Of a stretch of DNA of 64,000 bases, positions 29,066 through 44,156 are shown piece by piece. The translations under genes and the position numbers were made by a program. The notes beneath the pieces are model-generated. The model had not been told where the DNA came from. It saw only the letters and a list, made by a program, of their open reading frames with translations, and made no database searches. Source of the stretch: Xanthomonas sp. F10 (GTDB lineage Bacteria; Pseudomonadota; Gammaproteobacteria; Xanthomonadales; Xanthomonadaceae); the NCBI RefSeq assembly GCF_014206815.1, contig NZ_JACHNP010000004.1, positions 186,001 to 250,000 on the forward strand. The letters run 5' to 3'. Within the stretch, counting starts at the first letter, position 1. Each line of letters opens with the position of its first letter.

Positions 29066-29410
29066 ATGGACGAATCGTTGATGCTGCAAGTGCTGACGCG
29101 ACTGCTTACGCAGTTGCCGCTCTTGCTGGTCTATGTGGTCGGTCTGGCGCTGCTGTTCACGCGCCGTCCTGGCCGTGCGCGCACCTTGGGCATCTGCGGG
29201 CTGGCGATCCTGCTGCTGGCCTTGGTCCTGGGGACGGCGATGTCGTTCGTGCCGATGTGGCTGGTTTCCCAAGGCCATAGCTACTCGTCGGTCTCAAGCA
29301 TGCTTGGCATCGTCAGCTTCGTCGCCGCGCTGATATTCGCGGCGGGCATGCTGCTGGTGGTGCTGGCGCTGCGCTTCGCCCTGCCGCCGCGCGTGGCGGC
29401 GCCGCACTGA
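29066..29410 (+). CDS. Small membrane protein, three helices
   Basis: A 114-residue protein of unknown function with hydrophobic segments at about 14-33, 43-62 and 82-105. The region between the first two is basic (TRRPGRARTLG). GGGAG lies about nine bases before the ATG. Lies 37 bases after aroE and may be co-transcribed. Confidence 0.7.
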   Translation: MDESLMLQVLTRLLTQLPLLLVYVVGLALLFTRRPGRARTLGICGLAILLLALVLGTAMSFVPMWLVSQGHSYSSVSSMLGIVSFVAALIFAAGMLLVVLALRFALPPRVAAPH

Positions 29411-29444
29411 CCGACGCCGACGGGCCTGGTCCATGGAGGGCGCC

Positions 29445-29807
29445 ATGCTGGCGATGGGGCTGTACCCGGTGCTGGACGTGAGCGCGCTGACCGGCGCGCT
29501 CGGCCTGCTGGCGCGTCTGCTGCTGCCGCTGATCGCCCTGCTGCTGCTCCCGCGGCTGGCGCCGGGCCGCGCGCGCACCCGGGCGCGGCTCGGGCTGACG
29601 GTGTTGCTGGTGGGCGCGATCCTGCCGCGGCTGTTGGACGCGGTGCTGGCATGGGCGGCCTTGATCGACGATCAGTTCCGCGCCATGCATCCGGGCGTCT
29701 ATGCGCTGGTGCATCTGCTGGACGATGCGCTGTACGTGGTCGGCCTGGGGTTGCTGCTGCGCGCGCTGTGGCTGGCGCTGCCGCGCAAGGGCGCGCCGCC
29801 GCCGTAG
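29445..29807 (+). CDS. Small membrane protein
   Basis: A 120-residue hydrophobic protein with three or four helices (about residues 8-40 in two parts, 52-72 and 88-108) and a basic loop PGRARTRARLG. Function unknown. The start at 29445 is favoured by GGAGG five bases upstream; an ATG four codons earlier (29433) overlaps that site. It lies 34 bases after the previous small membrane protein gene. Confidence 0.65.
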   Translation: MLAMGLYPVLDVSALTGALGLLARLLLPLIALLLLPRLAPGRARTRARLGLTVLLVGAILPRLLDAVLAWAALIDDQFRAMHPGVYALVHLLDDALYVVGLGLLLRALWLALPRKGAPPP

Positions 29808-29874
29808 GGCGGCATGGCGCGCCGTTCAGTTCCCGCGTTTCAGTCCTTGCGACGGGACGTGAGAAAATGTCGGG

Positions 29875-32004
29875 ATGACCGAGTCCCCTTCGCCGTCGAC
29901 GCCGCCCGCGTCCGGCCCGTCCCCGCGTCAGCTCACCGAACCGGTCAAGCTGGCCATCCGCGATGCCTACGCCAAGCTGCAGGCCAATACGCCGGGCTTC
30001 CGCGTGCGCCGCGCGCAGAGCCAGATGATCGGCGTGGTCTCGCGCGCGCTGGGCACGTCCGGCGGCGTGGGCGTGGCCGAAGCGCCCACCGGCGTCGGCA
30101 AGAGCCTGGGCTATCTGACCGCCGGCGTGCCGATCGCGCTGGCCAGCAAGAAGAAGCTGGTGATCAGCACCGGCACGGTGGCGTTGCAGTCGCAGCTGGT
30201 CGAGCGCGACATCCCGGCCTTCCTCAAGGCGACCGGGCTGGAGGCCACGGTGGCCCTGGCCAAGGGCCGCACCCGTTACCTGTGCACGCGCAACGTGGCC
30301 GAGCTGCATGGCGAAGCCGCGCAGGACAGCATGTTCGAGGACGAGGCGCCGTTGTACGACCGCCCGCTGAGCCCGGCCGAGGCCGAACAGGCGCGGGCGC
30401 TGGCCAAGGCCTACGCCGACAGGACCTGGAACGGCGACCTGGACGCCGCGCCGGAGCCGGTGCCGCCGTCGCTGCGCGCGCGCATCACCACCAATGCCGC
30501 CGGCTGCGCCGGGCGGCGCTGTTCGTTCGCGGTGCAGTGCCCGGTGCTGAAGGCGCGCAGCGAGGTGCGCGATGCGCAGATCGTGGTCACCAACCACGCC
30601 CTGCTGCTGTCGGCGCTGTCGCTGGGCGACAGCGACAACGGCCAGCCGCTGATCGCGCCCCCGTCGGACATGCTGCTGGTGCTCGACGAGGGCCACCACA
30701 TCGCCGGCGTCGCCATCGACCAGGGCGCAGCCAATCTGCCGCTGGACGAGATGGCGCGGCGCACCGGCCGCCTGCAGGCGCTGGTCGGCGCCGCCTACCG
30801 GCTTGCCGACAAGGACCGCATCGGCAACCAGTTGCCCAACGAGGCGGTCGAACTGGCCGCGCAGGTGGCCAAGGGGCTGAAGGCGTTCCGCGCCGAGATC
30901 GAACGGGTGTGGGTGCCGGAGCCGGGCCAGGACGAACCGATGTGGCGCGCGCCCAACGGTCGTCTACCCGAGGACTGGAAGCCGCTGATCGATGCGCAGG
31001 CGCAGGACACCGGCGCGCTGCTGAACTGGGTGCAGGCCGCGCACCAGATGGCGGCCAAGTCCAAGCAGGAGGATGCGGCCAAGGAACGCCTGCAGCGCAA
31101 CCTGGGCATGGCCCTGGAGATGGTCGAGCAGCAGTACGCGCTGTGGCTGGGCTGGCGCCGCGAGGACCAGGACGGGCAGCCGCCGATGGCGCGCTGGATC
31201 ACCGCCTCGCGCGATGCCGATCTGATCTGCCATTGCTCGCCGGTGTCGGCCGCGCAGGTGCTGCGCTCGCTGCTGTGGAGCGAGGTGGACGCGGCGGTGC
31301 TGACCTCGGCCACGCTCACCGGCGGCGGCGATTTCCAGGCGCTGGCGATCGACAACGGCCTGCCCGCGCACGCCGAGATGGTGTCGCTGTCCTCGCCGTT
31401 CGACCTGCCCAACCAGGCCGAACTGATCGTGCCGGCGTTCCCGGTGGCGCCGGACGACCGCGAGGGCCACCCGCGCGAAGTGGCGCGCTACCTGGTGCGC
31501 GAGCTGGACTGGGGCAAGGGCTCGATCGTGCTGTTCACCTCGCGCTGGAAGATGCTCAAGGTGGCCGACCTGTTGCCGATCGCGCAGCGCAACCGCGTGC
31601 TGGTGCAGGGCGACGGCTCCAAGTCGCAGATGATCGGCGAGCACATGCGCCGCATCGCCGCCGGCGAAGGCTCGGTGCTGTTCGGCCTCAATTCCTTCGG
31701 CGAAGGCCTGGACCTGCCGGGCGAGGCCTGCACCACGGTAGTCATCACCCAGGTGCCGTTCGCGGTGCCGACCGATCCGCAGACCGCCACGCTCGGCGAA
31801 TGGTTCGAGAGCCGCGGCCTCAACGCCTTCAACCTGATCGCGGTGCCGCACGCGCTGCGCACCCTGACCCAGTTCGCCGGCCGCCTGATCCGCACCGCCG
31901 ACGACCACGGCCGCGTGATCATTCTCGATTCGCGGCTGCTGACCAAGCGCTATGGCAAGCGCATCATCGATGCGTTGCCGCCGTTCAAGCGGGTGATCGG
32001 CTAG
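29875..32004 (+). CDS. dinG: ATP-dependent DNA helicase DinG (XPD-like, Fe-S)
   Basis: A 709-residue superfamily 2 helicase that unwinds 5-prime overhang DNA, R-loops and D-loops in DNA repair. Motif I EAPTGVGKSLGYL (about residue 75), motif Ia STGTVALQSQL, the four Cys of the iron-sulfur cluster (RYLC; then AAGCAGRRCSFAVQC), Walker B as LDEGHH (the DEGH form of DinG/XPD), and motifs V-VI near GLNSFGEGLDLPGE and LTQFAGRLIR. Length equals the DinG family. The N-terminus is Ser/Pro-rich. In E. coli dinG is LexA-controlled; I see no clear LexA box here. Confidence 0.94.
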   Translation: MTESPSPSTPPASGPSPRQLTEPVKLAIRDAYAKLQANTPGFRVRRAQSQMIGVVSRALGTSGGVGVAEAPTGVGKSLGYLTAGVPIALASKKKLVISTGTVALQSQLVERDIPAFLKATGLEATVALAKGRTRYLCTRNVAELHGEAAQDSMFEDEAPLYDRPLSPAEAEQARALAKAYADRTWNGDLDAAPEPVPPSLRARITTNAAGCAGRRCSFAVQCPVLKARSEVRDAQIVVTNHALLLSALSLGDSDNGQPLIAPPSDMLLVLDEGHHIAGVAIDQGAANLPLDEMARRTGRLQALVGAAYRLADKDRIGNQLPNEAVELAAQVAKGLKAFRAEIERVWVPEPGQDEPMWRAPNGRLPEDWKPLIDAQAQDTGALLNWVQAAHQMAAKSKQEDAAKERLQRNLGMALEMVEQQYALWLGWRREDQDGQPPMARWITASRDADLICHCSPVSAAQVLRSLLWSEVDAAVLTSATLTGGGDFQALAIDNGLPAHAEMVSLSSPFDLPNQAELIVPAFPVAPDDREGHPREVARYLVRELDWGKGSIVLFTSRWKMLKVADLLPIAQRNRVLVQGDGSKSQMIGEHMRRIAAGEGSVLFGLNSFGEGLDLPGEACTTVVITQVPFAVPTDPQTATLGEWFESRGLNAFNLIAVPHALRTLTQFAGRLIRTADDHGRVIILDSRLLTKRYGKRIIDALPPFKRVIG

Positions 32005-32129
32005 CGAATGCGCGTGCGACGCCGCTGATGCCGACGTGGTCGGTCGCTGCTCTGCGCGACGGGCCGCGGGCAGCGTCGTAGCAGCGTGAAATTGTCTACC
32101 GTGCCGTCCATGGATGCGTCGATGCGCGC

Positions 32130-32159
32130 TTGACGGCCCTGATCCCAAAAAGCGATAAA
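32130..32159 (+). promoter_or_regulatory. Candidate promoter of the RiPP operon
   Basis: TTGACG (32130-32135) and GATAAA (32154-32159) are separated by 18 bases. Transcription would start near 32166, about 40 bases before the HlyD start at 32205. The stretch is richer in A than the neighbourhood (CCCAAAAAGCGATAAAC). Confidence 0.45.
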
Positions 32160-32204
32160 CATTCACGCGCTAGGAAAGCACACAGCGCCGCTCAGGGGAT
32201 GGCG

Positions 32205-33488
32205 ATGGCGGACGGATTCTTCAGGGAAGAAGTGTTTCGAGCGCGCCGCGAGGGCTGGCTCGGCGCCGTGCGCCTGGACGCGCCACGCTTCGGTTGGGCT
32301 TACTTCTGGGTCAGCATCGCACTACTCGTCTTTGTTCTGACGCTGCTGTGCATTGGCAGCTATACGCGGCGAGAAGCGGTCAGTGGCACGTTGGTGCCCG
32401 ATCGCGGGCTGCTGACCATGACGCCTTCGGCCTCTGGGCGGGTCGTGCGTACGTTCGCCAAGGAAGGCGCGAAAGTCCGTGCGGGACAACCGCTGATCGA
32501 GATTTCCGGCGAACAGGACAGCGCCTCGCTCGGCGATACGCAGGCATCGGTGATCGCGCAATTGCGCCTCAAGCGCGAGCGTTTGCGTTCGGACATCGAG
32601 GAACAGCGCAGCCTGTCGCAGGCGCAGGATCGCGACTTGCGTACGCGAATCGAACTGCTGAAACGTCAGATTGCCAGTACCGAAGAACAGATCGGTCTGC
32701 AGCGGCAACGTGCCGATAGCGCCATGCGCCTGTACGAGCAATGGTCCAGTCCCGGCAACCGTGGGGTATTGACCAAGGTGCAGTTGCTGCAGCAGCAGGA
32801 TGTGGCGATACAGAATCAGGCGCAGCTCAAGGATCTGCAGAAGCATTCGCTGGAACTGCGGCAGCAGCAATCGCAATTGCGGACACAGCTGGAGCAGCTT
32901 CCGGCAACGCTGATCGGAAAGAACAACGAGATCGACCGGCAACTGGCGGACGTGGCACAGTCGATTTCCGAGAGCGAGGCCCGCCGCGCGGTGATCCTGC
33001 GCGCGCCATCGGATGGGATCGTTGGCAATCTGCTGGTGTATCCGGGGCAGCCGGTCGCTGCACAGCAGCCGTTGATGACGCTGTTGCCGCAGGAGACGCG
33101 TCTGCGCGCCGAGCTCTGGGTGTCTTCGCGTGCAGTCGGGTTCGTCAGCCCAGGCGATCGGGTGGTGTTGCGCTATCAGGCATTTCCGTATCAAAAGTTC
33201 GGACGGCACGCCGGCCGCGTCGCGGAAATTTCGCGCAGTGCGATGAGTTCGGGCGATCTGACCCGGTTGCTGGGCCAGGACATCAAGGAGCAGCGCTACC
33301 GGGTGGTCGTCGAACTGGGTAGCCAGAATGTCGTGGCGTACGGACGCAAGGAGCCACTGCGCCCCGGGATGGCGCTGGATGCGGACATTCTGCTGGAACG
33401 CAGACACCTGATCGAATGGATGTTCGAGCCGGTCTACGAACTGGCCGCCGGGATGCGCGATGCCCCGTCTGACGAGCGTGGGTCATGA
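32205..33488 (+). CDS. HlyD-family membrane fusion protein of a peptide exporter (CvaA-like)
   Basis: A 427-residue periplasmic adaptor that would link the inner-membrane peptide exporter to an outer-membrane channel such as TolC. Short cytosolic N-terminus, one transmembrane helix (about residues 34-54), a lipoyl half-motif (GRVVRTFAKEGAKVRAGQPL), a long alpha-helical hairpin rich in Gln/Arg/Leu (about 110-260), the second lipoyl half (LRAPSDGIVGNLLVYPGQPV) and a beta-barrel end. The start at 32205 is chosen for AGGGG six bases upstream; ATG 32199 is also possible. Its stop overlaps the exporter start (ATGA), so the pair is coupled. Confidence 0.88.
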   Translation: MADGFFREEVFRARREGWLGAVRLDAPRFGWAYFWVSIALLVFVLTLLCIGSYTRREAVSGTLVPDRGLLTMTPSASGRVVRTFAKEGAKVRAGQPLIEISGEQDSASLGDTQASVIAQLRLKRERLRSDIEEQRSLSQAQDRDLRTRIELLKRQIASTEEQIGLQRQRADSAMRLYEQWSSPGNRGVLTKVQLLQQQDVAIQNQAQLKDLQKHSLELRQQQSQLRTQLEQLPATLIGKNNEIDRQLADVAQSISESEARRAVILRAPSDGIVGNLLVYPGQPVAAQQPLMTLLPQETRLRAELWVSSRAVGFVSPGDRVVLRYQAFPYQKFGRHAGRVAEISRSAMSSGDLTRLLGQDIKEQRYRVVVELGSQNVVAYGRKEPLRPGMALDADILLERRHLIEWMFEPVYELAAGMRDAPSDERGS

Positions 33489-35656
33489 GCGGGTCCTGGT
33501 CGCCCTGGAGGTCGCCGTTTGCGACGCGGATCGTGCCGGTCATGCAGACCGAGGCGGCGGAGTGCGGCCTGGCCTGCCTGGCGATGGTCGCGGGATTCCA
33601 CGGGCAGAACGTCGACCTGCCCAGCCTGCGTCGGCGCTTCAGCATCTCGTTGCAGGGCGCACGTCTTGAGCGTCTGATGCAAATCGCGCGCACCATCGGT
33701 TTCGAGGTCAGGCCGATGCGCGCTGAGCTCGACTACCTGGCCGCTGTTGGCGGCCCCTGCATCCTGCACTGGGATCTAAGCCACTTCGTGGTCCTTGAGC
33801 GCGTCACGCGAGGGGTCGCGCTGATCCACGACCCTGCGCGCGGCGTGCTGCGGCTGCCGCTGGCAGAGGTCGGCAAGCATTTCACCGGCGTGTTGCTGGA
33901 ACTGGTGCCGAGTCCGAGCTTCGAGAAGGTGGCGGCGCCGCAGCCGGTGTCCTTGCGGATGCTGACCGGGAGGGTCGTCGGGCTGCGTCGCGCGCTGGTG
34001 CAGGTCTTTGCGCTGGCGCTGGCGATCGAGATGTTGGTGCTGCTGATGCCATTCCAGATGCAGTGGCTGATCGACCACGTCCTGGTCTCCGCAGACATGC
34101 CACTGCTGAAGATCCTGGCGATCGGATTCCTCCTCGCGGTACTCGCACAGACGGCGCTGAGTCTGGCGCGCAGCTGGGTGGTCAGCTGGCTGGGCGCCTC
34201 GCTCAACAGCCAGTGGATCAACAACCTGTTTGGCCACCTGATGCGATTGCCGCTGGACTATTTCGAAAAGCGGCATATGGGCGATGTGCTGTCCCGGTTC
34301 GGATCGCTGAAGTCGATCCAGACGACGCTGACCGGCAGTTTCGTCGAAGCAGTCCTCAACGGCATGACCGGCGTACTGGCGCTGGTGGTGCTGTTTTTCT
34401 ACAGCGCCAAGCTCGCCGGTTTGGTGTTGACGGCATTCGTCTGCTACTTGCTGCTGCGCGTGGCGATGTACCGCGTGCAGTTCCGGATCACCCGCGATCA
34501 ATTGTTTCATTCGGCGCGGCAGCAGAGCGAGTTGATGGAGTCGGTCCGCGGCATCCAGGCGATCAAGCTGGCCAACAAGCAGGGCCTGCGTCAGAGCCGG
34601 CTGTTCGCGGCGACCGTCCAGGCCGCCAGTCTGGATATGCAGGCGCAGCGCATTGGCCTGGCGTTCACCGCATTGAATGGCGGCGTCTTCGGGCTCCAGC
34701 GCGTGCTGCTGATCAGCATCGGTGGCTACATGGCACTGCATGATGCGTTGTCGGCGGGCATGCTGGTGGCGTTTCTCAGCTATGCGGATCTGTTCACCAG
34801 CCGGGCAGGAAGCCTGGTCGACAAGTGCGTCGAGTTTCGTATGCTGCGATTGCATGCCGAGCGTATCGCCGACATCGCCATGAGTGATCCCGAACCGCAT
34901 GCGCTGGGACACTACAGTGGGCCCGAACTGGCGCCGGAGATTGAGCTCAAGGGCGTGAGCTTCCGCTACTCCGACGATGATCCTTGGGTCCTGCGCCACT
35001 TTGATCTGAAGATTCGCGCAGGCGAATCGGTGGCCATCGTCGGACCGAGCGGTTGCGGCAAATCCACCCTGGCCAAACTCCTGTTGGGCTTGCTCGCGCC
35101 AACCGAAGGGCATATCGAGGTGGGCGGTGTGGAAATCCGACGGCTGGGGTTGGAGACCTATCGCGGCATGGTCGGTGCGGTGATGCAGGACGACCAGCTT
35201 TTCGCCGGCTCGTTGGCCGACAACATCGCGTTCTTCGATCCTGACGCCAGCCTGCAGCGCGTTGTGGCCGCCGCCAAGCTGGCGGCCATCCACGACGACA
35301 TCGTGCGGATGCCGATGGGCTACGAATCGTTGGTTGGCGACATGGGGTCGATCCTGTCGGGCGGGCAGCGGCAGAGAGTGATTCTGGCGCGTGCCCTGTA
35401 CCGGCAGCCCAAGATCCTGGTGCTGGATGAGGCAACCAGCCATCTGGATCGGCAGCGCGACGAGATGGTCAATGCGCACATCAAGGCGCTGAGCATGACG
35501 CGCGTCCTGATCGCGCATCGAGAAGACACCATCGCCTCGGCCGACCGCAAGGTCGTGCTGGGGGCGGAGCGGAATCAAGGCGTGCGTCATGGCGCCGAAA
35601 GACTTGACGCGTCGCGAAGCGTCGAGAAGCTCGCCGGCATCGTCGCCGGCGAATAA
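33485..35656 (+). CDS. ABC peptide exporter with C39 leader peptidase (CvaB-like)
   Basis: A 723-residue exporter that cuts the leader of a peptide and exports the core. The N-terminal C39 peptidase has Gln21, Cys27 (QTEAAECGLACLAMV), His100 (HWDLSHFVVL) and Asp116 (IHDPARG), so the full catalytic set is present. Six transmembrane helices fill about residues 165-440. The ATPase has Walker A GPSGCGKST, signature LSGGQRQRV, Walker B ILVLDEAT and the H-loop His in IAHRED. It overlaps the HlyD gene by four bases, and the precursor gene starts 26 bases later. Confidence 0.93.
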   Translation: MSGSWSPWRSPFATRIVPVMQTEAAECGLACLAMVAGFHGQNVDLPSLRRRFSISLQGARLERLMQIARTIGFEVRPMRAELDYLAAVGGPCILHWDLSHFVVLERVTRGVALIHDPARGVLRLPLAEVGKHFTGVLLELVPSPSFEKVAAPQPVSLRMLTGRVVGLRRALVQVFALALAIEMLVLLMPFQMQWLIDHVLVSADMPLLKILAIGFLLAVLAQTALSLARSWVVSWLGASLNSQWINNLFGHLMRLPLDYFEKRHMGDVLSRFGSLKSIQTTLTGSFVEAVLNGMTGVLALVVLFFYSAKLAGLVLTAFVCYLLLRVAMYRVQFRITRDQLFHSARQQSELMESVRGIQAIKLANKQGLRQSRLFAATVQAASLDMQAQRIGLAFTALNGGVFGLQRVLLISIGGYMALHDALSAGMLVAFLSYADLFTSRAGSLVDKCVEFRMLRLHAERIADIAMSDPEPHALGHYSGPELAPEIELKGVSFRYSDDDPWVLRHFDLKIRAGESVAIVGPSGCGKSTLAKLLLGLLAPTEGHIEVGGVEIRRLGLETYRGMVGAVMQDDQLFAGSLADNIAFFDPDASLQRVVAAAKLAAIHDDIVRMPMGYESLVGDMGSILSGGQRQRVILARALYRQPKILVLDEATSHLDRQRDEMVNAHIKALSMTRVLIAHREDTIASADRKVVLGAERNQGVRHGAERLDASRSVEKLAGIVAGE

Positions 35657-35682
35657 CCATGCTGTCTTTCAAGGAGAGTGGA

Positions 35683-35859
35683 ATGGAAACTGTCGTGAAC
35701 ACGGAAAATTCGCGTCCCGTCGCCCAGCGCTTCGCGCGTGAAATGACCCAGGAAGAAGTCAATGCGATCTCCTGTGGTGGCGGTCAGCAGCAGGGCGACA
35801 CGCTGATCGTCATCATCGTCGAAGCTGTCGATACCGAGACCATCGTCATCATCGGCTGA
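35683..35859 (+). CDS. RiPP precursor peptide with double-glycine leader, graspetide-like core
   Basis: A 58-residue peptide. Leader: about residues 1-33, with FAREMTQEEVNAISCGGG, a double-glycine-type processing region. Counting the conserved hydrophobics (Met21, Val26, Ile29) places the cut after Gly32 (CG) by the strict register, or after Gly33 (GG) by motif. Core: Gln-rich start, then two related units, DTLIVII and DTETIVII, joined by VEAV. It contains Thr40, Thr51, Thr53 and Asp39, Glu47, Asp50, Glu52, the donor and acceptor side chains used by graspetide ligases. A perfect AAGGAGAG site fixes the start. Its placement between the C39 exporter and the ATP-grasp gene is decisive. Confidence 0.85.
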   Translation: METVVNTENSRPVAQRFAREMTQEEVNAISCGGGQQQGDTLIVIIVEAVDTETIVIIG

Positions 35860-35868
35860 TCGGAAGGC

Positions 35869-35896
35869 GCATGGCGGCGCTGCAGCGCCGCCATGC
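35869..35896 (+). terminator. Perfect 28-base palindrome between precursor and ligase genes
   Basis: Positions 35869-35882 are the exact inverse of 35883-35896 (14-bp GC-rich stem, ten bases past the precursor stop). No T-run follows. It is best read as an attenuator or mRNA-stabilising hairpin that leaves more precursor than ligase mRNA. Confidence 0.65.
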
Positions 35897-35926
35897 ATCC
35901 GGCGAGACTGCACAACGGATGCCCAG

Positions 35927-37015
35927 ATGACGCAGGAAGAGGCAAGGAAGGTCTTGATCGTGGCGCCGCAACGCGACACGCACGCAACGGCCATCGCCGC
36001 CATGATCGTGGCGGCGGGACATACGGTGGAGTTGTTCGACAGTGGCGCATGGCCGACCGGCATGACCGGATCGATGCTGTGCGACACGCACGGAGCCCGC
36101 TTCGTGCGCGACGGGTCACCATTGCACTATGACGCCGCCTGGTGCAGGCGGTTGCTGTTCAAGAAGCAGCCGCCCGCGGCGGTGCACGAGCAGGATGTGG
36201 GATTCATCCGCTCCGAGGGATTGCTGTTCGACCTTGGAACGCTTGCCGTGATGGGGAGCGGGGTCGGCGTGCAGCGCTGGATCAATGCGCCGATGCAGGC
36301 GCTGATGGCGGACCAAAAGGCATTGCAGTTGGCGATGGCGGCAGCCAGCGGCCTGCGCCTCCCGCGGACCCTGATCAGCCGCCGTGCGGACGACATTCGT
36401 CGGTTTCGTAGCGCCGAACCGGATGGCGTTGTCGTCAAGCCATTCAACGTCGGGGCCTGGTCGGAAAACGCGGGCTATAGCGTGTCCTATGCGACGCGCG
36501 TCTGTATCGAGGAAACCCTGGCCGATGGCGACGTGAGCGCCTGCCCCACCAACTACCAGGAAGTTGTGCCCCACCGTGGCGATTTGCGCGTCGTCTGCCT
36601 CCAGGGGCAGTACGTAGCGGTCAAGATGACGCATGCGCTGGAAGGCGAGATCGATTACCGCGCGGTGCGCCACAAGACCACGATCACCTATGCCGAGATT
36701 GCGCTGCCGCACGCGCTGCTGGTCAAGCTTGAGCACCTGCGACAGACGCTGGCCATCGACTTTTTCTGTGCCGATTTTCTCGTCCCGGCGGATGGAGGCG
36801 AGCCGATCTTCATCGAGCTCAACCCGGGCGGCCAGTTCCTGTATCTGGACCAGAAGCTTCCACATCTGGATGTCGCACGCAAGTTCTGCGCTTTGCTGGT
36901 GCATGGTGACATCGCGCGCTATCGCGAGTTCGCCATGCCTGTCGTCGTCGCACCGCTTGCGCACGCATCCGAGCGCACACCGATCCCAACTGAAACGAGT
37001 CCCTTATGCGAATGA
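35927..37015 (+). CDS. ATP-grasp ligase, graspetide (MvdD-like) type
   Basis: A 362-residue ATP-grasp enzyme expected to form ester or amide bonds between Thr/Ser/Lys and Asp/Glu side chains of the precursor. The N-terminal domain starts KVLIVAPQRDTHATAIAAMI. The ATP-grasp core has Lys171 (GVVVKPFN), the substrate/ATP stretch YQEVVPHRGDLRVVCLQGQY and the metal-binding motif FIELNPGGQFLYLDQKLP with Glu297 and Asn299. The E(L/I)NPxGQ(W/F)L pattern is typical of omega-ester peptide ligases such as MvdC/MvdD. Ends in a ten-base overlap with the DUF6624 gene. The exact bonding pattern cannot be told. Confidence 0.85.
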   Translation: MTQEEARKVLIVAPQRDTHATAIAAMIVAAGHTVELFDSGAWPTGMTGSMLCDTHGARFVRDGSPLHYDAAWCRRLLFKKQPPAAVHEQDVGFIRSEGLLFDLGTLAVMGSGVGVQRWINAPMQALMADQKALQLAMAAASGLRLPRTLISRRADDIRRFRSAEPDGVVVKPFNVGAWSENAGYSVSYATRVCIEETLADGDVSACPTNYQEVVPHRGDLRVVCLQGQYVAVKMTHALEGEIDYRAVRHKTTITYAEIALPHALLVKLEHLRQTLAIDFFCADFLVPADGGEPIFIELNPGGQFLYLDQKLPHLDVARKFCALLVHGDIARYREFAMPVVVAPLAHASERTPIPTETSPLCE

Positions 37016-37620
37016 TGATGCGTTTGGCCGCGGCGGCGGCCCTGTTCGCGATCGCTGGCTACGGTTTCGCACGTCCTCGACAGGAGCCCTCGATGGCCCA
37101 TTCTGACCAAGCCGCGAGCGTAAATGCCGAGTACCGGCAACAGCTTCTGCAGCTTGCCCGGGCCGACCAGCAGATCCGCGACGATGCCCTGAAGCACTAC
37201 ACGCCGCAGCAGTTGCAGAGCGATCCTGGTGCCGCGCGTGCTCTCGCGTTGCAGATCCATGCTTCGCAGCAACAGAACCAGCAGAAGCTCTCCGCGCTGA
37301 TGGGCCAATACGGCTTTCCGGATACCACGGTCGCCGGTGATGACGGCGCGCACGCGGGCTTTCTGATCGCGCAGCATGCCGCGGACCGGACGTTCCGTGA
37401 CGCGTTCCTGCAAGGCATCGAAGCCGCGGCCGACAAGGGGCGCTACAGCAAAGAGGATCTCGCGCTATTCGTGGATCGCAACCGCGTGCTGAGTGGTCGG
37501 CCGCAACTCTATGGGACCCAGCACAAATCAGATGGCAGCCTGTTCGATGTAGAACAGCCGGAGCAGCTGCAGCAGCGCCGAGCCAAGATGGGATTGCCGC
37601 CGGACGTCGCCGGACAGTGA
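37006..37620 (+). CDS. Secreted DUF6624 family protein in the RiPP operon
   Basis: A 204-residue protein with a signal peptide (MRMMMRLAAAAALFAIAGYG). The mature part carries the DUF6624 pattern: repeated Gln/Asp-rich helices (LLQLARADQQIRDDALKHY), MGQYGFPDTTVAGDDGAHAG, FLIAQHAADRTFRDAFLQ, then DRNRVLSGRPQLYGTQHKSD and the ending QRRAKMGLPPD. Function of the domain is unknown. The ten-base overlap with the ATP-grasp gene implies that it belongs to the operon, possibly as an immunity, maturation or partner protein. ATGs at 37012-37018 are alternative starts. Confidence 0.82.
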   Translation: MRMMMRLAAAAALFAIAGYGFARPRQEPSMAHSDQAASVNAEYRQQLLQLARADQQIRDDALKHYTPQQLQSDPGAARALALQIHASQQQNQQKLSALMGQYGFPDTTVAGDDGAHAGFLIAQHAADRTFRDAFLQGIEAAADKGRYSKEDLALFVDRNRVLSGRPQLYGTQHKSDGSLFDVEQPEQLQQRRAKMGLPPDVAGQ

Positions 37621-37929
37621 CGCGGCGGCAAGCAGGCCGCGGCTGGAGACGGAGACATGCTCCTCCCCGCCTGAGGCAGTCAGAGCTCAAGCGCCGAACT
37701 GTTCGCGGACGAGATCGCGGGGAGGCTAGGCTTGGGCGCCCTCGCGGGTGTGTCAGGTAGTGGGCAACCTCGCCTGGATCAGTCGCGAATGCGTGACGTA
37801 GTTCGTCAAAAAAGGTGATTCCAGCCGCTAGATCTGTGTGAGCTGGGCGCTGATATGTGTTGTCCAGCCCAAAAGCAGGGACATGCCGCGCGCGCTGATC
37901 TAGTATCCCCCGGCGACAGGGGGATCATC
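37621..37929 (+). other. Gene-free gap between the two DUF6624 genes
   Basis: I see no small peptide gene with a ribosome site and no second precursor in these 309 bases. A-rich runs near 37806-37815 (GTCAAAAAAGG) could be part of a promoter for the next gene. Confidence 0.4.
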
Positions 37930-38421
37930 ATGCGAGTCGCCAGACAGTGGGCGTTCGGAGCGGCGTTGTGGGTGCTGGCGGGCATCGCCCCGGCGCAGCC
38001 GACCGGCGCACCGACAGAAGACACCGCGGCGGTGGCCAATCCGGCCTACCGCACGCAACTGCTGCAGTTGATCAGCGACGACGCGCAGGCGCGCGCCGAC
38101 CTCAAACGGGACTACACGCCGCAGCGGCTGCAGCACGATACCGTCTCGTTGCGCGCGTTCGCGCGTGAGGTGCGGATGGCGCAGAAGGAAAGCCAGGAGC
38201 GCCTGGCCGAGCTGATCCGGCGCCAGGGCTTTCCCGATGCGCAGGCGGTCGGCGCCGAGACGGCGCACGCGGTGTTCCTGATCGCCCAGCGCATCACCGA
38301 GCCGGGCTTCCGCGCCGACTTCCAGCGCGGCATCGACGCGGCCGTGCAGCGCGACGCCTACAGCCGTGCCGATCAAACGCTGTTCGCCAATCGTAGTCGC
38401 GCGCTGAGCGCGAAGCGCTAG
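37930..38421 (+). CDS. Second secreted DUF6624 protein, C-terminally short
   Basis: A 163-residue paralog of the protein at 37006-37620 with its own signal peptide (to about residue 22, PAQA). Matching blocks are YRTQLLQLISDDAQARADLK, RDYTPQRLQHDT, IRRQGFPDAQAVGAETAHAV and FLIAQRITEPGFRADFQRGI. It stops at LFANRSRALSAKR, exactly where the first copy goes on with SGRPQLYGTQ, so the conserved C-terminal part is missing. The start at 37930 follows AGGGGGATCATC. Either a degenerated duplicate or a specialised short form. Confidence 0.75.
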   Translation: MRVARQWAFGAALWVLAGIAPAQPTGAPTEDTAAVANPAYRTQLLQLISDDAQARADLKRDYTPQRLQHDTVSLRAFAREVRMAQKESQERLAELIRRQGFPDAQAVGAETAHAVFLIAQRITEPGFRADFQRGIDAAVQRDAYSRADQTLFANRSRALSAKR

Positions 38422-38725
38422 CGTCGCCATCGCGGCAATGCCGACGCGGCATCGCGCCGCGGTGCGCGTGCGAACGCATCGCCAGGTGTCGACGCTGCCG
38501 ATGCCCCGCGTGCATGTCTACATTTTGCGGCCGATCTGCACTGGCATCGCCGTCGATTGACGTTGCAGTTGCGCTGTCGCTGCAACGGATTGCGCGCTCC
38601 GGCAATGGTCGCGATCACAGTGCGCGTGCGTGATTGGTTGCGTCGATGGCATCGATTGCAACGAACGAATGTTCTGCGCGCCGCGCTGCCGCCATGCTGC
38701 AGCTCCCTTCACGCGAGCCGACGCC
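38422..38725 (+). other. katB upstream region
   Basis: 304 bases without a gene. It contains an inverted repeat GTTGCAG / CTGCAAC at 38562-38568 and 38580-38586, and further TTGCAAC-type words at 38581 and 38655. I cannot see a full OxyR site (four ATAG half sites). Confidence 0.4.
38562..38586 (+). promoter_or_regulatory. Inverted repeat upstream of katB
   Basis: Perfect 7-bp arms (GTTGCAG and CTGCAAC) with an 11-base spacer, about 140 bases before the katB start. A TTGACG box overlaps its left side (38558-38563). Candidate regulator site; the binding protein is not evident. Confidence 0.35.
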
Positions 38726-40249
38726 ATGCGCCCTGGATCCCTGTTGTTGCTTGTCCTGTTGTCGCCTTCCCTGAGCCTGTCGGCCAGTGCCGCACAGTCC
38801 ACGCTCACCCGCGACAATGGCGCGCCGGTGGGCGACAACCAGAACTCGCAAACCGCAGGGCCCAATGGCCCGACGCTGCTGCAGGACGTGCAACTGATCC
38901 AGAAGCTGCAGCGCTTCGACCGCGAGCGCATCCCCGAGCGCGTGGTGCACGCGCGCGGCACCGGCGTGCATGGCGAGTTCACCGCCACCGCCGACATCTC
39001 CGACCTGAGCAAGGCCAAGGTGTTCGCGCCGGGTACCACCACGCCGGTGTTCGTGCGCTTCTCCTCGGTGGTGCACGGCAACCATTCGCCGGAAACGCTG
39101 CGCGATCCGCACGGCTTCGCCACCAAGTTCTATACCAGCGAAGGCAACTGGGACCTGGTCGGCAACAACTTCCCGACCTTCTTCATCCGCGATGCGATCA
39201 AGTTCCCGGACATGGTGCATGCGTTCAAGCCGGACCCGCGCACCAACCTCGACGACGATGCGCGCCGCTTCGACTTCTTCTCGCACGTGCCCGAGGCGAC
39301 CCGCACCCTGACCCTGCTGTACTCCAACGAAGGCACGCCCGCCGGCTATCGCTTCATGGACGGCAACGGCGTGCACGCCTACAAGCTGGTCAACGCGCAG
39401 GGCCAGGTGCATTACGTCAAGTTCCACTGGAAGAGCCTGCAGGGCCTCAAGAACCTGGATCCGCAGCAGGTGGTGGCGGTGCAGGGCAAGGACTACAGCC
39501 ACCTGACCAACGACCTGGTCGGCGCGATCAAGCGTGGCGACTATCCGAAGTGGGACCTGTACATCCAGGTGCTCGCGCCCGAGGATCTGGCCAAGTTCGA
39601 CTTCGATCCGCTGGACGCCACCAAGATCTGGCCGGGCGTGCCCGAGCGCAAGATCGGGCAGATGGTGCTGAACAAGAACGTGGACAACTTCTTCCAGGAG
39701 ACCGAGCAGGTGGCGATGGCGCCGGCCAACCTGGTGCCGGGCATCGAGCCGTCGGAAGATCGCCTGCTGCAGGGGCGCATCTTTTCCTACGCCGATACCC
39801 AGCTGTACCGCGTCGGCACCAATGGCCTGAGCCTGCCGGTGAACCGGCCGCGGGTGGCGGTCAACAACGGCAACCAGGATGGCGCGATGAACGCCGGCAG
39901 CACCAACAGCGGCGTGAACTACGAGCCGAGCCGGCTCAGCCCGCGGCCGCAGGATCCGAGCGCGCGCTACAGCCAGTTGCCGCTGTCAGGCACCACCCAG
40001 CAGGCCAAGATCACGCGTGAGCAGAACTTCAAGCAGGCCGGCGAGCTGTTCCGCAGCTACAGCAAGAAGGAGCAGCAGGACCTGATCCAGAGCTTCGGCG
40101 AATCGCTGGCCGGCACCGACGACGTGAGCAAGCACATCATGCTGTCGTTCCTGTACAAGGCCGATCCGGCCTACGGCAGCGGCGTGGCACGGGTGGCCAA
40201 GGGCGACCTGGCGCGGGTCAAGCAACTGGCCGCGCAGTTGCAGGATTGA
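38726..40249 (+). CDS. katB: Exported haem catalase KatB
   Basis: A 507-residue monofunctional catalase that splits hydrogen peroxide into water and oxygen. A signal peptide (MRPGSLLLLVLLSPSLSLSASA) shows export to the periplasm. Catalytic His lies in ERIPERVVHARGTG, the active-site Asn in the GNNFPTFFIRDA region, and the proximal haem ligand Tyr in RIFSYADTQLYR. Small-subunit type by length. The start at 38726 is chosen for the signal peptide; the frame is open 32 codons further upstream without a plausible N-terminus. Followed by ankB, as in Pseudomonas. Confidence 0.94.
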   Translation: MRPGSLLLLVLLSPSLSLSASAAQSTLTRDNGAPVGDNQNSQTAGPNGPTLLQDVQLIQKLQRFDRERIPERVVHARGTGVHGEFTATADISDLSKAKVFAPGTTTPVFVRFSSVVHGNHSPETLRDPHGFATKFYTSEGNWDLVGNNFPTFFIRDAIKFPDMVHAFKPDPRTNLDDDARRFDFFSHVPEATRTLTLLYSNEGTPAGYRFMDGNGVHAYKLVNAQGQVHYVKFHWKSLQGLKNLDPQQVVAVQGKDYSHLTNDLVGAIKRGDYPKWDLYIQVLAPEDLAKFDFDPLDATKIWPGVPERKIGQMVLNKNVDNFFQETEQVAMAPANLVPGIEPSEDRLLQGRIFSYADTQLYRVGTNGLSLPVNRPRVAVNNGNQDGAMNAGSTNSGVNYEPSRLSPRPQDPSARYSQLPLSGTTQQAKITREQNFKQAGELFRSYSKKEQQDLIQSFGESLAGTDDVSKHIMLSFLYKADPAYGSGVARVAKGDLARVKQLAAQLQD

Positions 40250-40312
40250 TGCGTCCCACGCGCGGCGTGGCGGCGCTATCGCCGCGCTGCGCATCTTCTT
40301 GCGGAGATCACC

Positions 40313-40870
40313 ATGCGTCGTGTTGTTCTTTTCCTGCTCGGCCTGGCGGTGAGCGCCACGGCCGCCGCGGCACCGGCCGCGCCTGCGGCGCCCGATCCGG
40401 CCGCGGTGCAGGCACAATTGCGCACCTATTTCTTCGATGCCGCGCGGCAGGGCCGCCAGGACATGCTGGCCGAGTTCATCCGTGCCCATTACGACCTCGA
40501 TACCCGCGACGACAAGGGCTACACCGCGTTGATTCTGGCCGCCTACCACGGCCAGCAGGCGGCGGTGGAGCAGTTGCTGCGCGCAGGTGCCGACCCTTGC
40601 GCGCAGGACAAGCGCGGCAACACCGCGCTGATGGGCGCGATCTTCAAGGGCGAACTGAGCATCGCCAAGCGGCTGATGCAGGCCGATTGTGCGCCGGACC
40701 AGCGCAACAACGCCGGGCAGACCGCGGCGATGTACGCGGCCCTGTTCCAGCGCACCGAGGTGCTGAAGGAACTCGCGGCCAAGGGCGCCGATCTGCAGGC
40801 CAAGGATGCGCAGGGCAACGACGTGGCCCGGCTGCAGCGCGGCGAGTTCGCGACCGCACCGGCGCGCTGA
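40313..40870 (+). CDS. ankB: Periplasmic ankyrin-repeat protein AnkB, katB partner
   Basis: A 185-residue protein with a signal peptide (cut near TAAAA) and four ankyrin repeats, e.g. DTRDDKGYTALILAAYHGQQ, DKRGNTALMGAIFKGELSIA and NNAGQTAAMYAALFQRTEVL. In Pseudomonas aeruginosa the homologous AnkB supports full KatB activity in the periplasm, possibly as an antioxidant scaffold. It lies 63 bases downstream of katB on the same strand, with a GGAGATCACC site before the ATG, so the two form an operon. Confidence 0.9.
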   Translation: MRRVVLFLLGLAVSATAAAAPAAPAAPDPAAVQAQLRTYFFDAARQGRQDMLAEFIRAHYDLDTRDDKGYTALILAAYHGQQAAVEQLLRAGADPCAQDKRGNTALMGAIFKGELSIAKRLMQADCAPDQRNNAGQTAAMYAALFQRTEVLKELAAKGADLQAKDAQGNDVARLQRGEFATAPAR

Positions 40871-40877
40871 GCGATCG

Positions 40878-40895
40878 CGCCCCGCCTCCGGGGCG
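40878..40895 (+). terminator. Short GC hairpin after ankB
   Basis: Stem CGCCCCG/CGGGGCG (7 bp) with a 4-base loop eight bases after the ankB stop. No T-run; candidate end of the katB-ankB operon. Confidence 0.5.
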
Positions 40896-41104
40896 GGTGC
40901 CGGGCATGGCCATCGCACCGCGCGTGGATCGCGGACCCCGGATCGGCGAAAATGCCCGGGTGGCCGGTTCCTCCGGCCCGCCGCGGCCCGAGCCGCCGCT
41001 GTCCGCCGCCTTGGCGGGCGGCGGCGCATCCGGGCTGCGTGCTGCCCTGTCGGCATCGTGCCGGCGCCCTGCCGCGGCTCGCCGTTGCCCTTCCCGGATC
41101 TGTC

Positions 41105-42676
41105 TTGAACGCCACTGCCCCTGTTTCGCCCGACGAGCTGCCCCTGGCCGAGCGCCTGCGCATCGCCCTGGACCTGCTCGAGGCCATCGCCGCCGACCGG
41201 CGCGTGCTCGATACCGTGCCGGAGGCCGAGCGGGTGCGCCTGCTGCAGGTGGTCGCGCAGGTCTTCAACCCCGAACCCAAGGCGCGGCGCAAGCTGCTCA
41301 AGGAACAGGCGCGCGAGCGCCACCAGGAGAAGGTGCGCAAGGCCGAGGAGCTGCTGGCGCAGACCGGCATCCGCGCGCTGCGGCGCAAGCCGGTGTTCAG
41401 CACGCCGAACTATTTCCCGCCGCACACGCCGGAAGCGCTGATCCACGCGCAGGCCGCGGCGGCCGAGCCGGCAGCGCACTCGCCCGAACTGCGCCACTGC
41501 TACGTGTGCAAGCAGAAGTACACCGAGCTGCACCACTTCTACGACCAGATGTGCCCGCCCTGCGCGGAGTTGAACTACGTCAAGCGCACCGAGACCGCGG
41601 ACCTGCGCGGGCGCGTGGCGCTGCTCACCGGCGGCCGGGTCAAGATCGGCTACCAGGCCGGGCTCAAGCTGCTGCGTGCCGGCGCCGAGCTGATCGTGAC
41701 CACGCGCTTCCCGCGCGACTCGGCGGCGCGCTACGCGCAGGAGCCGGATTTCGCCGAATGGGGCCACCGCCTGCAGGTGTACGGGCTGGACCTGCGCCAC
41801 ACGCCCAGCGTCGAGGCGTTCTGCAGCGAACTGCTGGCCACCCGCACGCGCCTGGATTTCATCGTCAACAACGCCTGCCAGACCGTGCGCCGGCCGCCGC
41901 AGTTCTACGCGCACATGCTGGCCGGCGAGACCGCCGCGCTGCACGAGCTGCCCGAACACGTGCGCCGGCTGGTGGGCCAGTACGAAGGCCTGCGCGGTCC
42001 CGACCTGCTGCCGTCCGGGGGGAACACGCTGCCGGCCGGGGCCGGCAATGGACGCGCCGGTGCCGACGGTCTGCTGCGCGCCGCGGAACTGTCGCAGGTG
42101 CCGCTGCTGGCCGACGATCTGCTCGCCCAGCAGCACCTGTTCCCGGAAGGGCGCCTGGACCAGGACCTGCAGCAGGTGGACCTGCGCGGGCGCAACTCCT
42201 GGCGCCTGCTGCTGGACGAAGTGTCCTCGGTGGAACTGCTGGAGACGCAACTGGTCAACGCGGTCGCGCCGTTCGTCCTCAACGCGCGGCTCAAGCCGCT
42301 GATGCTGCGCACGCCCGAGCGCGACAAGCACATCGTCAACGTATCGGCGATGGAGGGGCAGTTCTACCGCAACTTCAAGACCACCCGGCATCCGCACACC
42401 AACATGGCCAAGGCCGCGTTGAACATGATGACCCGCACCTCGGCGGCCGATTACCAGAACGACGGCATCCACATGAACAGCGTGGACACCGGCTGGGTCA
42501 CCGACGAGGATCCGGCCGAGATCGCCGCGCGCAAGGTGCAGGAAGAGCGCTTCCATCCGCCGCTGGACATCGTCGATGGCGCCGCGCGCATCGTCGATCC
42601 GATCATCCACGGCTTCAACACCGGCGAGCACGTGTGGGGCCAGTTCCTCAAGGACTACGCGCCGACCGATTGGTGA
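41105..42676 (+). CDS. SDR-family protein with N-terminal Cys4 segment
   Basis: A 523-residue protein. Residues 1-120 are helical and charged. Then comes a Cys pair arrangement CYVCKQKYTELHHFYDQMC with PPC after it, a likely zinc knuckle. The C-terminal part is a short-chain dehydrogenase fold: nucleotide loop TGGRVKIGYQ (in place of TGxxxGIG), IVNNACQTVRRPP, and VNVSAMEGQFY. The usual catalytic Tyr is absent: the segment HPHTNMAKAALNM has Thr four before Lys. Enzyme activity is therefore doubtful. Start is a TTG at 41105 (MNATAPVSPDEL); this choice is uncertain. Confidence 0.75.
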   Translation: MNATAPVSPDELPLAERLRIALDLLEAIAADRRVLDTVPEAERVRLLQVVAQVFNPEPKARRKLLKEQARERHQEKVRKAEELLAQTGIRALRRKPVFSTPNYFPPHTPEALIHAQAAAAEPAAHSPELRHCYVCKQKYTELHHFYDQMCPPCAELNYVKRTETADLRGRVALLTGGRVKIGYQAGLKLLRAGAELIVTTRFPRDSAARYAQEPDFAEWGHRLQVYGLDLRHTPSVEAFCSELLATRTRLDFIVNNACQTVRRPPQFYAHMLAGETAALHELPEHVRRLVGQYEGLRGPDLLPSGGNTLPAGAGNGRAGADGLLRAAELSQVPLLADDLLAQQHLFPEGRLDQDLQQVDLRGRNSWRLLLDEVSSVELLETQLVNAVAPFVLNARLKPLMLRTPERDKHIVNVSAMEGQFYRNFKTTRHPHTNMAKAALNMMTRTSAADYQNDGIHMNSVDTGWVTDEDPAEIAARKVQEERFHPPLDIVDGAARIVDPIIHGFNTGEHVWGQFLKDYAPTDW

Positions 42677-42731
42677 GGCGGCGCGCCGCCATCGCCACGG
42701 TGCGCGACGTGCATCCGCGTCCGCGCGCGGC

Positions 42732-43160
42732 CTAGCCGCGCGTGCGGTCCGCGGCCGTGGCGGCAACGGGTTCGGCGTCCTTCTCGCGGCCCCAGAACTC
42801 CACCATGATGGTCATCATGGTCCACACGATCAGTGTCGGCTGCACCTTGTCCGGCAGCAGGTCGTGACCCTTGAGCATCACGTCGATCACCTTCGGCAGC
42901 AGCAGCGCCATCACCAGGGTGTAGATCGCGTAGGCCACCCGGTGCCGGCTGCTGGAAATGAACAGGATCGAGATGACCAGGCTGGCCAGCACGGCCAGCG
43001 CCACGCCGAACTGCCAGGCACTGAGGCGTTCGGTGCCGGTGAGCACCAGGCCCAGGATGGCGCCGAAAAACATGTTCAGGCCGTTGAGGTTGGCCTGGTA
43101 CTCGTCCTTGGTCATGCGGCCGAGGCCGACCTTGCCGAACACGTTCCATCCCTTGCGCAT
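42732..43160 (-). CDS. Small membrane protein, four helices
   Basis: A 142-residue protein of unknown function, with helices at about residues 30-45, 50-70, 78-96 and 108-125. The N-terminal cytosolic part is basic (MRKGWNVFGKVGLGRMTKDE). A strong AAGGGGAACGAGC site precedes the ATG. Its stop codon lies in a GC hairpin and its 3-prime end converges with the SDR gene. Confidence 0.8.
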   Translation of the reverse strand: MRKGWNVFGKVGLGRMTKDEYQANLNGLNMFFGAILGLVLTGTERLSAWQFGVALAVLASLVISILFISSSRHRVAYAIYTLVMALLLPKVIDVMLKGHDLLPDKVQPTLIVWTMMTIMVEFWGREKDAEPVAATAADRTRG

Positions 43161-43317
43161 GCTCGTTCCCCTTCGCGCTGTCGCATCCTGGCGCCGCCAC
43201 GCCCATCGGCTGGCCGCACGCCTCCCCGCGCCCACTGTAGCGAAGATCGCGCGCGTTCGCCGCCTGTCCGCCGCACGCGGGGCATCCGTGCCCGACAGCG
43301 TGGGACGCGCGCCTGCG

Positions 43318-43785: not shown

Positions 43786-44156
43786 TGGCGGCGCTTCCTG
43801 GGGCGTGACCAGCCTGCAGCCTACCGATTCGGGAGTGGTGGCGTCGTCGACCGCATGTGCGCGCCAGGTTCGGTGGAGGTGGTTGCGCCAAGGCATCGTG
43901 CCGATGCCGGGGGTGGATCAACGCCGGCATCGGCGCTTGCGCGCACCGCCGGCGCGCCGTGGTGCATCCCGGCGTTGCAACCGCGCGTGTCCACGAGCCG
44001 CACCCTCGGACCGCCATGCATTAACCCGCACGTAGCGGCGCGCCGCGCCGTGGCGGCATGCGCACGCGACGTGTTGTACCGTTGCCACGCGCGCCGCCCC
44101 CGATGTCGCACACCATCGCACGGCAGCGCCTTTTCTTCTCCAGCAGACTTCGATCG

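What the first reader, a model, noticed from the sequence alone, without database searches (positions are those of the whole stretch)
32130..37620. Unrecognised graspetide-like RiPP operon with a C39 exporter and DUF6624 protein
Five genes in a row on one strand, with overlaps at two junctions (33485, 37006): HlyD adaptor, C39-ABC exporter with complete catalytic set, 58-residue double-glycine precursor, MvdD-type ATP-grasp ligase (FIELNPGGQFLYLD), secreted DUF6624 protein. Sequence shows the motifs; family knowledge says ATP-grasp ligases of this type form ester/amide macrocycles in RiPPs. The core (Thr, Asp, Glu with Ile/Val) matches no graspetide consensus I know, and dedicated C39 export together with DUF6624 is unusual.
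Basis: partly seen in the sequence, partly recalled or inferred. Interest (0 to 1): 0.93.

Follow-up and report, generated by a model that had tools for sequence, protein, structure and literature searches.

The report
Xanthomonas operon for a ring-closed peptide
A five-gene bacterial operon very probably makes, cross-links and secretes a small, very greasy peptide of a known natural-product class (graspetides); what stands out is that the residues expected to form the rings have not changed between species while the enzymes that make the peptide have diverged.

Summary
The five genes are as described, except that HlyD probably starts at 32205, not 32130. By sequence and predicted fold the ligase is a graspetide synthetase (closest solved structures MdnB/MdnC). 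The leader resembles those of Lysobacter/Luteimonas precursors, and the whole operon recurs in seven other species at the same site (dinG-[operon]-catalase). A conspecific genome lacks this block. One truncated homologous locus (L059) lacks peptide, exporter and half the ligase.

The graspetide reading stands, but 'unrecognised' and 'unusual' do not: Xanthomonas graspetide loci, C39 exporters and DUF6624 partners are in print (PMC8939145, PMC13097080).

From these calls: (1) the core DTL...VEA(V/I)DTET... keeps all seven Thr/Asp/Glu in 8 of 8 species, with nearly all other changes Ile/Val, while the ligase falls to 57-62% identity; (2) a hairpin between precursor and ligase genes is conserved, with three compensatory pairs; (3) a confident helical DUF6624 model has no significant PDB match; (4) the site is shared by both Xanthomonas groups, with loss in some genomes, which fits a fixed target better than an arms race.

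Rings, bioactivity and the DUF6624 role are inferred. Whether this core is already in published supplements could not be checked.

The parts
32011..37878 (.). Presence/absence block: the window strain has it, conspecific genome G060 has about 86 bp instead
   Evidence: Window 29330-32010 and 37879-44000 match G060 at 97-98% with nothing between
32205..33488 (+). HlyD-family periplasmic adaptor (open frame begins upstream; ATG 32205 preferred)
   Evidence: TIGR01843 E 3.8e-41 (below cut-off), PF13437 E 4.4e-17; start by comparison with L054
33485..35656 (+). C39 peptidase-containing ABC exporter (PCAT), 723 aa
   Evidence: PF03412 E 3.3e-32, PF00664, PF00005; motifs located
35683..35859 (+). 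Precursor peptide, 58 aa: leader METVVNTENSRPVAQRFAREMTQEEVNAISCGG, then core region GQQQGDTLIVIIVEAVDTETIVIIG (cut site not certain)
   Evidence: eight-species alignment A4; leader-only matches in Lysobacter/Luteimonas-type precursors
35869..35896 (+). RNA hairpin (12 pairs, 4-base loop) starting 10 bases after the precursor stop codon, before the ligase gene
   Evidence: 96 of 96 cells paired in 8 species, 3 pairs changed on both sides; once in the window, at two places in the genome with the core pattern
35927..37015 (+). ATP-grasp graspetide synthetase, 362 aa
   Evidence: TIGR04187 E 7.6e-37, below cut-off; MdnB 5ig8 E 1.3e-19; predicted fold pLDDT 85.4, best match MdnC 5ig9 E 9.1e-22; K131, K171, D283, E297, N299 invariant in 29 sequences
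37006..37620 (+). DUF6624 protein with a signal-peptide-like N-terminus (by eye), 204 aa
   Evidence: PF20329 E 4.2e-18; AlphaFold2 model of residues 40-204, pLDDT 93.8, no significant PDB match
37930..38421 (+). Degenerate DUF6624 paralogue beside the operon; probably not part of the pathway
   Evidence: 41% identical to the DUF6624 protein over 152 residues; no Pfam match; QH of the family is QR and the GKPQxYGTQ segment is missing (orthologues); kept in G060 without the operon

Best explanation
This is a graspetide operon. The precursor is made in excess over the enzymes, helped by a hairpin after its stop codon (inferred). The ATP-grasp ligase binds the RPVAQRFAREM part of the leader, phosphorylates Asp/Glu side chains of the core and lets Thr hydroxyls attack them, giving up to three ester rings (loss of 18 Da each) among Thr2, Thr13, Thr15 and Asp1, Glu9, Asp12, Glu14 (core numbered from D of DTL; inferred from the class). 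The product would be a hairpin of two Ile/Val-rich strands; a nested pattern Asp1-Thr15 and Thr2-Glu14 is my guess. The C39 domain cuts at the glycines after SC and the ABC/HlyD exporter secretes the ~24-26-residue peptide (by homology). The secreted DUF6624 protein acts on or binds the peptide outside the cytoplasm (inferred). The product has a fixed target, since its ring residues do not change between species (inferred). I think inhibition of a serine protease most likely, as for studied graspetides (about 1 in 3). The confidence given is for class and pathway, not for rings or function.
For: Ligase family, fold and invariant residues. Gene order kept in the window and seven other species. 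Leader shares RPxA..xARExxxxEIxAIS(C)GG with Lysobacter/Luteimonas-type precursors found beside related ligases. The leader has the 'Phhx(1,2)h' motif that PMC8939145 links to the ligase (PVAQRF; definition). Core Thr/Asp/Glu: 7 of 7 invariant in 8 of 8 species, against 5 of 13 other core positions (one-sided hypergeometric p 0.010, not corrected for kinship). Exporter and adaptor complete. Hairpin with compensatory changes.
Against: No chemistry tested. The ligase scores below every NCBIfam cut-off and is only 24-34% identical to the 21 ligases aligned outside its clade. The core puts an acid before the first Thr and acids between the later Thr residues, unlike the Thr-first, acid-last cores that I recall for microviridin and plesiocin. 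The conserved Cys in SCGG shifts the double glycine by one residue from the usual hydrophobic -4/-7/-12 register (rule in PMC10885120; precursors), so the cut site is uncertain. The homologous contig L059 lacks precursor, exporter and the N-terminal part of the ligase.
Confidence: 0.87

Rival explanations
1. Same enzymes and rings, but the secreted peptide is a signal or a self-acting factor rather than an inhibitor of foreign proteases.
For: Ring residues of the core are invariant while ligase and DUF6624 fall to 57-62% and 53-58% identity; shared site with absence in other genomes.
Against: The five genes of the block are accounted for and none is a receptor or regulator. Close ligases in only 6 of 297 family genomes, the window's own included, argue against a general signal.
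Confidence: 0.3
2. The peptide is an antibacterial compound and DUF6624 is its immunity protein.
For: Dedicated exporter; DUF6624 is the last gene, overlaps the ligase gene and looks secreted. Patchy presence.
Against: 76 of 91 DUF6624 matches in 297 genomes are not within 3 kb of an ATP-grasp match (short contigs may hide some neighbours). DUF6624 also sits with ligases whose precursors have unrelated cores. An antibacterial in an arms race would be expected to vary its core; here 7 of 7 ring residues are fixed.
Confidence: 0.15
3. DUF6624 is a periplasmic processing enzyme that makes a second modification on the cross-linked peptide.
For: DUF6624 within 3 kb of an ATP-grasp in 15 of 91 cases against about 0.1 expected, in several ligase clades; nearly invariant Asp-Gln, Gln-His, Asp-Arg and (Y/F)G(T/S)Q. 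PMC13097080 suggests a new class of biosynthetic enzyme.
Against: No catalytic set can be assigned without a related structure; most copies lie elsewhere. Compatible with the main explanation.
Confidence: 0.4
4. The exporter secretes an unmodified microcin-like peptide and the ATP-grasp modifies something else.
For: C39 plus HlyD alone also serve unmodified peptides (recalled).
Against: Ligase and precursor are adjacent in 8 of 8 complete loci, the leader is shared with precursors beside other ligases, and all candidate ring residues are invariant.
Confidence: 0.07

Closest known systems
Xanthomonas graspetide precursors of clusters 70 and 75, and Lysobacter cluster 859 (PMC8939145: abstract, passages, section 6 part 2 and section 7 seen)
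   Same: Same genus, ligase loci linked to C39-ABC and HlyD families, shared leader with diverse cores
   Different: Cannot be compared residue by residue: their consensus sequences are in a figure and supplements not held; this operon may be one of them
Graspetide groups 18, 20 and 23 (PMC13097080: abstract, passages, sections 5 and 7 seen)
   Same: DUF6624 and NHLM-type exporter at high frequency, as here
   Different: Core consensus of these groups not available here; group 18 often has oxygenases, and none of the five proteins of this block matches one
Lysobacter/Luteimonas-type precursors with the core element THATGPNGDDP (e.g. L072, L093, L097, L120)
   Same: Homologous leader; HlyD, C39-ABC, then ligase in those four loci; in several of them DT follows the glycines closely, as here
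   Different: Thr-first, Asp-last polar core; no same-strand DUF6624 within 3 kb in those four loci; ligases 31-32% identical for the two aligned, L072 and L093
Microviridin macrocyclases MdnB/MdnC (PDB 5ig8, 5ig9)
   Same: Fold and sequence family
   Different: About 19-23% identity over the structural matches; precursor different (recalled for microviridin)

Membership tests
Graspetides (class of RiPPs) | ATP-grasp ligase of the macrocyclase kind | tested here: met
   Best families TIGR04187, MvdC, MvdD (all below curated cut-offs); best folds MdnC, AMdnB, CdnC, PruB, MdnB, PsnB, ahead of RimK from rank 33
Graspetides (class of RiPPs) | Ribosomal precursor next to the ligase, with leader and Thr/Ser/Lys plus Asp/Glu in the core | tested here: met
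   P0001 and 7 orthologues; 3 Thr and 4 Asp/Glu invariant
Graspetides (class of RiPPs) | Ester or amide bonds between core side chains | not testable with these tools
   Needs mass spectrometry; expected masses computed
Graspetides (class of RiPPs) | Leader motif Phhx(1,2)h (found in about half of precursors, PMC8939145) | tested here: met
   PVAQRF invariant in 8 of 8; motif definition
Graspetide groups 18, 20 or 23 | Group core consensus | not tested
Peptidase-containing ABC transporter (PCAT) | N-terminal C39 with Cys-His-Asp, then ABC membrane and ATPase domains | tested here: met
   PF03412, PF00664, PF00005; C27, H100, D116
PCAT substrate leader | Hydrophobic residues at -4, -7, -12 before a GG-like site | tested here: inconclusive
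   Fits if cut after SCG; off by one if cut after SCGG (rule from PMC10885120)
DUF6624 (PF20329) | Match over the curated cut-off | tested here: met
   65.9 bits against 27

The most novel reading that the evidence does not exclude
An old Xanthomonas graspetide system whose product is a nearly invariant, extremely hydrophobic cross-linked beta-hairpin with a fixed target, matured or carried outside the cell by DUF6624, a helical domain with no structural relative found in the PDB that acts as a new kind of RiPP partner protein.
Probability: 0.25. Interest if true: 0.75.

Novelty: new member of a known kind. Interest (0 to 1): 0.45.

Why it matters
It gives a tractable small system (one 58-residue precursor, one ligase, one exporter with its adaptor, one DUF6624 protein) for two open questions: which ring pattern an acid-first, aliphatic core takes, and what DUF6624, a frequent but unexplained graspetide partner, does. 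The fixed ring residues point to a conserved target, and a conspecific strain that lacks this block is a natural null for finding the function.

Tried and rejected
Rejected: that C39 plus DUF6624 is unusual. Thought less likely: that the block is a recent insertion in the window strain; all eight complete loci have it at the same site and the conspecific null keeps the DUF6624 paralogue 37930-38421, so loss is simpler. Rejected: that the precursor-ligase hairpin is a dispersed repeat; the pattern occurs at two places in the genome.

Led nowhere: PADLOC gave only two hits, both to the exporter; Rfam gave no match at gathering scores; promoter scan at chance level; plasmid search gave 59 records, all under 60% identity; Foldseek for DUF6624 gave nothing better than E 0.79, and a profile search of PDB sequences nothing better than E 1.2. 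A sample of 398 genomes of the phylum held no further close ligase.

Results against my reading or limits: one of five measures (further pair types) is no better than shuffles (435 of 500 reach it), another (pairs changed on both sides) is reached by 36 of 500, and seven of the twelve pairs never vary. The homologous contig L059 has no recognisable precursor, exporter or N-terminal ligase part upstream. Two DUF6624/ATP-grasp neighbour pairs are on opposite strands (G285; L072) and may not be functional; two of the 15 neighbours are pieces of one two-domain protein (G000:C1). L038 and L102 are the same X. albilineans contig, so the counts (18 of 103 frames) and the tree (17 of 102 rows labelled) hold it twice. 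The tree is a quick one with many long branches; rows of 200 residues or fewer were left out (1 of 103). In some searches only some first-look candidates were scored in part of the genomes, so counts are lower bounds. Core conservation is measured on eight related species (14-18 of 20 residues equal to the window's, i.e. 70-90%), not on independent lineages.
Full report
What is there. Five genes on the + strand follow each other: HlyD adaptor, C39-ABC exporter, a 58-residue precursor, an ATP-grasp ligase and a DUF6624 protein. The overlaps at 33485 and 37006 are real. The HlyD frame is open from TTG 32130, but ATG 32205 fits the start of the L054 orthologue and I prefer it. The precursor start at 35683 has a good ribosome-binding site, and the relatives have one at the matching start.

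The ligase. It falls below all NCBIfam cut-offs, but its best four families are all peptide maturases (TIGR04187, MvdC, MvdD, grasp-with-spasm). PDB sequence search gives MdnB (E 1.3e-19), MdnC, AMdnB, PruB, CdnC, PsnB (names as deposited). The AlphaFold2 model (pLDDT 85.4) matches MdnC best (E 9.1e-22), with RimK only from rank 33. Nineteen columns are invariant among 29 aligned ligases, including K131, K171, D283, E297 and N299. That these bind ATP and metal is from general knowledge of the fold.

Relatives. A scan of GTDB genomes (80 loci kept of 245 confirmed) found six Xanthomonas species with the complete operon (X. prunicola, X. arboricola pv. populi, X. hortorum, X. melonis, X. codiaei, X. 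dyei) and one truncated MAG contig, L059. With unnamed G003 of the window's genus and the window itself that makes eight species. L059 has DUF6624 (60% identical) and only residues 207-335 of the ligase (58%); nothing like precursor, exporter, adaptor or the rest of the ligase lies in the 3.6 kb upstream, so it is a decayed, rearranged or misassembled copy. Ligase identity to the window is 83% (G003) and 57-62% (the six named species); HlyD 96% and 67-68%; C39-ABC 96% and 73-75%; DUF6624 84% and 53-58%. In a sample of 297 family genomes 50 have some ATP-grasp relative, but only 6, the window's own and a partial contig (G072) included, have one at 57% identity or more. In an order sample of 397 genomes 4 have the full precursor and 5 more match in the leader only; three of the four full ones have precursors identical to those of X. 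melonis, X. codiaei and X. dyei. In the ligase tree the eight orthologues are one clade with 100% SH-aLRT support.

Same site, with loss. The six named species and G003 have the operon between dinG and the catalase gene, as the window does. A conspecific genome, G060, matches the window up to 32010 and again from 37879 with about 86 bp between. It keeps the degenerate DUF6624 paralogue 37930-38421. That paralogue is also in G003; in the six named species only one DUF6624 frame was found, and 339-608 bases lie between it and the catalase match. G001, of the same genus, matches up to 32007 and shows neither operon nor paralogue in the stretch read. I read this as an old locus lost in several genomes, not a recent insertion; the direction in G060 is an inference.

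The peptide. After the leader the core reads DTLIVIIVEAVDTETIVIIG. Across eight species Asp1, Thr2, Glu9, Asp12, Thr13, Glu14 and Thr15 never change (7 of 7), against 5 of 13 other positions; the rest swap Ile and Val, except position 19 (Phe in G003) and the last residue (Gly or Ser). The window's core equals the others at 14-18 of 20 residues, with 7-8 synonymous and 2-6 changed codons. In the six named species dinG is about 81% and catalase 86-88% identical to the window's. So the core, with its 70-90%, is held about as well as these flanking proteins, and its polar residues better, while the ligase and DUF6624 drift further. It is 55% Ile/Leu/Val, GRAVY 1.6.

The leader. RPVAQRFAREMTQEEVxAxSCGG resembles precursors of Lysobacter and Luteimonas (such as RPLARxAARELSxEEIAAISGG) whose cores hold THATGPNGDDP or a near copy of it (15 of the 16 loci searched gave such a precursor, L124 none; L088 and L165 gave two; L165 and L168 are one place, and L163 and L097 carry the same precursor). 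The leader carries the Phhx(1,2)h motif (definition from PMC8939145). A conserved Cys before the glycines is unexplained: with it the usual -4/-7/-12 hydrophobic register (PMC10885120, passages) points to a cut after SCG rather than SCGG.

The hairpin. Ten bases after the precursor stop begins a 12-pair stem (35869-35896). All 96 of 96 cells pair in eight species; three pairs change on both sides; the covariation score is reached by 1 of 500 shuffles, though the count of further pair types is not above chance (435 of 500) and pairs changed on both sides are reached by 36 of 500. Sliding the partner by 1 to 3 columns leaves at most 52% of cells paired. It is likely a stabiliser or attenuator that raises precursor over ligase; that role is inferred.

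DUF6624. In 297 family genomes 15 of 91 DUF6624 matches lie within 3 kb of an ATP-grasp match (about 0.1 expected), and 14 of 89 ATP-grasp matches have such a neighbour. The linked ligases fall into several clades (six changes on the tree, at least three forced by well-supported branches; 17 of 102 rows labelled). Invariant or nearly invariant positions include Asp15, Gln16, Arg19, Gln84-His85, Asp118-Arg119, Gln128, Gly131 and Gln133 of the domain. The model is confident (pLDDT 93.8, seven helices) but has no PDB match better than E 0.79. The N-terminus looks like a signal peptide in the window and its orthologues (by eye, no predictor run). So it probably works outside the cytoplasm; whether as enzyme, carrier or immunity factor is open.

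Literature. Eight full-text searches in the held library found two papers that bear directly. PMC8939145 (abstract, passages, section 6 part 2, section 7) already reports Xanthomonas graspetide loci, with C39-ABC the top and HlyD the fourth linked family, and an abundant secreted family 'cluster 23', often lipoproteins, with conserved His and Arg; it may be DUF6624 (my inference; the window's protein has no obvious lipobox). PMC13097080 (abstract, passages, sections 5 and 7) reports DUF6624 in groups 18, 20, 23 and 42 and NHLM exporters in groups 18, 20 and 23 among others. PMC9576775 (passages) reports graspetides from Lysobacter capsici and others made in E. coli. Ramesh 2021 is not held. 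I therefore file this as a new member of a known kind; the core may already sit in a supplement.

Noticed in passing
window 37930-38421: Degenerate DUF6624 paralogue next to the operon, an open frame in the window, G003 and G060, without the conserved His; it survives where the operon is gone.
   Followed up: partly
L035 (G000:C1 about 2.087-2.093 Mb): The same genome has a second HlyD-C39-precursor-ATP-grasp-DUF6624 operon with an acid-first core (EDDDGDDGDGKKKNRTKVT...) and a DUF6624 protein with two matched stretches; X. albilineans has two such loci (L038, L039).
   Followed up: partly
L043 (G030:C1:822000-841000): An ATP-grasp locus with five precursor-like frames in a row, two of them with repeated DSGT units.
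   Followed up: no
L163-L168, L072, L088, L093, L097, L120 and others: Lysobacter/Luteimonas-type precursors with a homologous leader and a core built on THATGPNGDDP; some loci have two copies.
   Followed up: partly
L091: A Caulobacter MAG has DUF6624 directly after a distant ATP-grasp of this family, so the pairing goes beyond Lysobacterales.
   Followed up: no
window 35773-35784 and orthologues: A Cys before the double glycine (SCGG) is conserved in 8 of 8 precursors and shifts the C39 cleavage register by one; unexplained.
   Followed up: partly
L059 (same match in L137): A MAG contig with DUF6624 and only the C-terminal part of a close ligase, without precursor or exporter: decayed, rearranged or misassembled.
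   Followed up: partly
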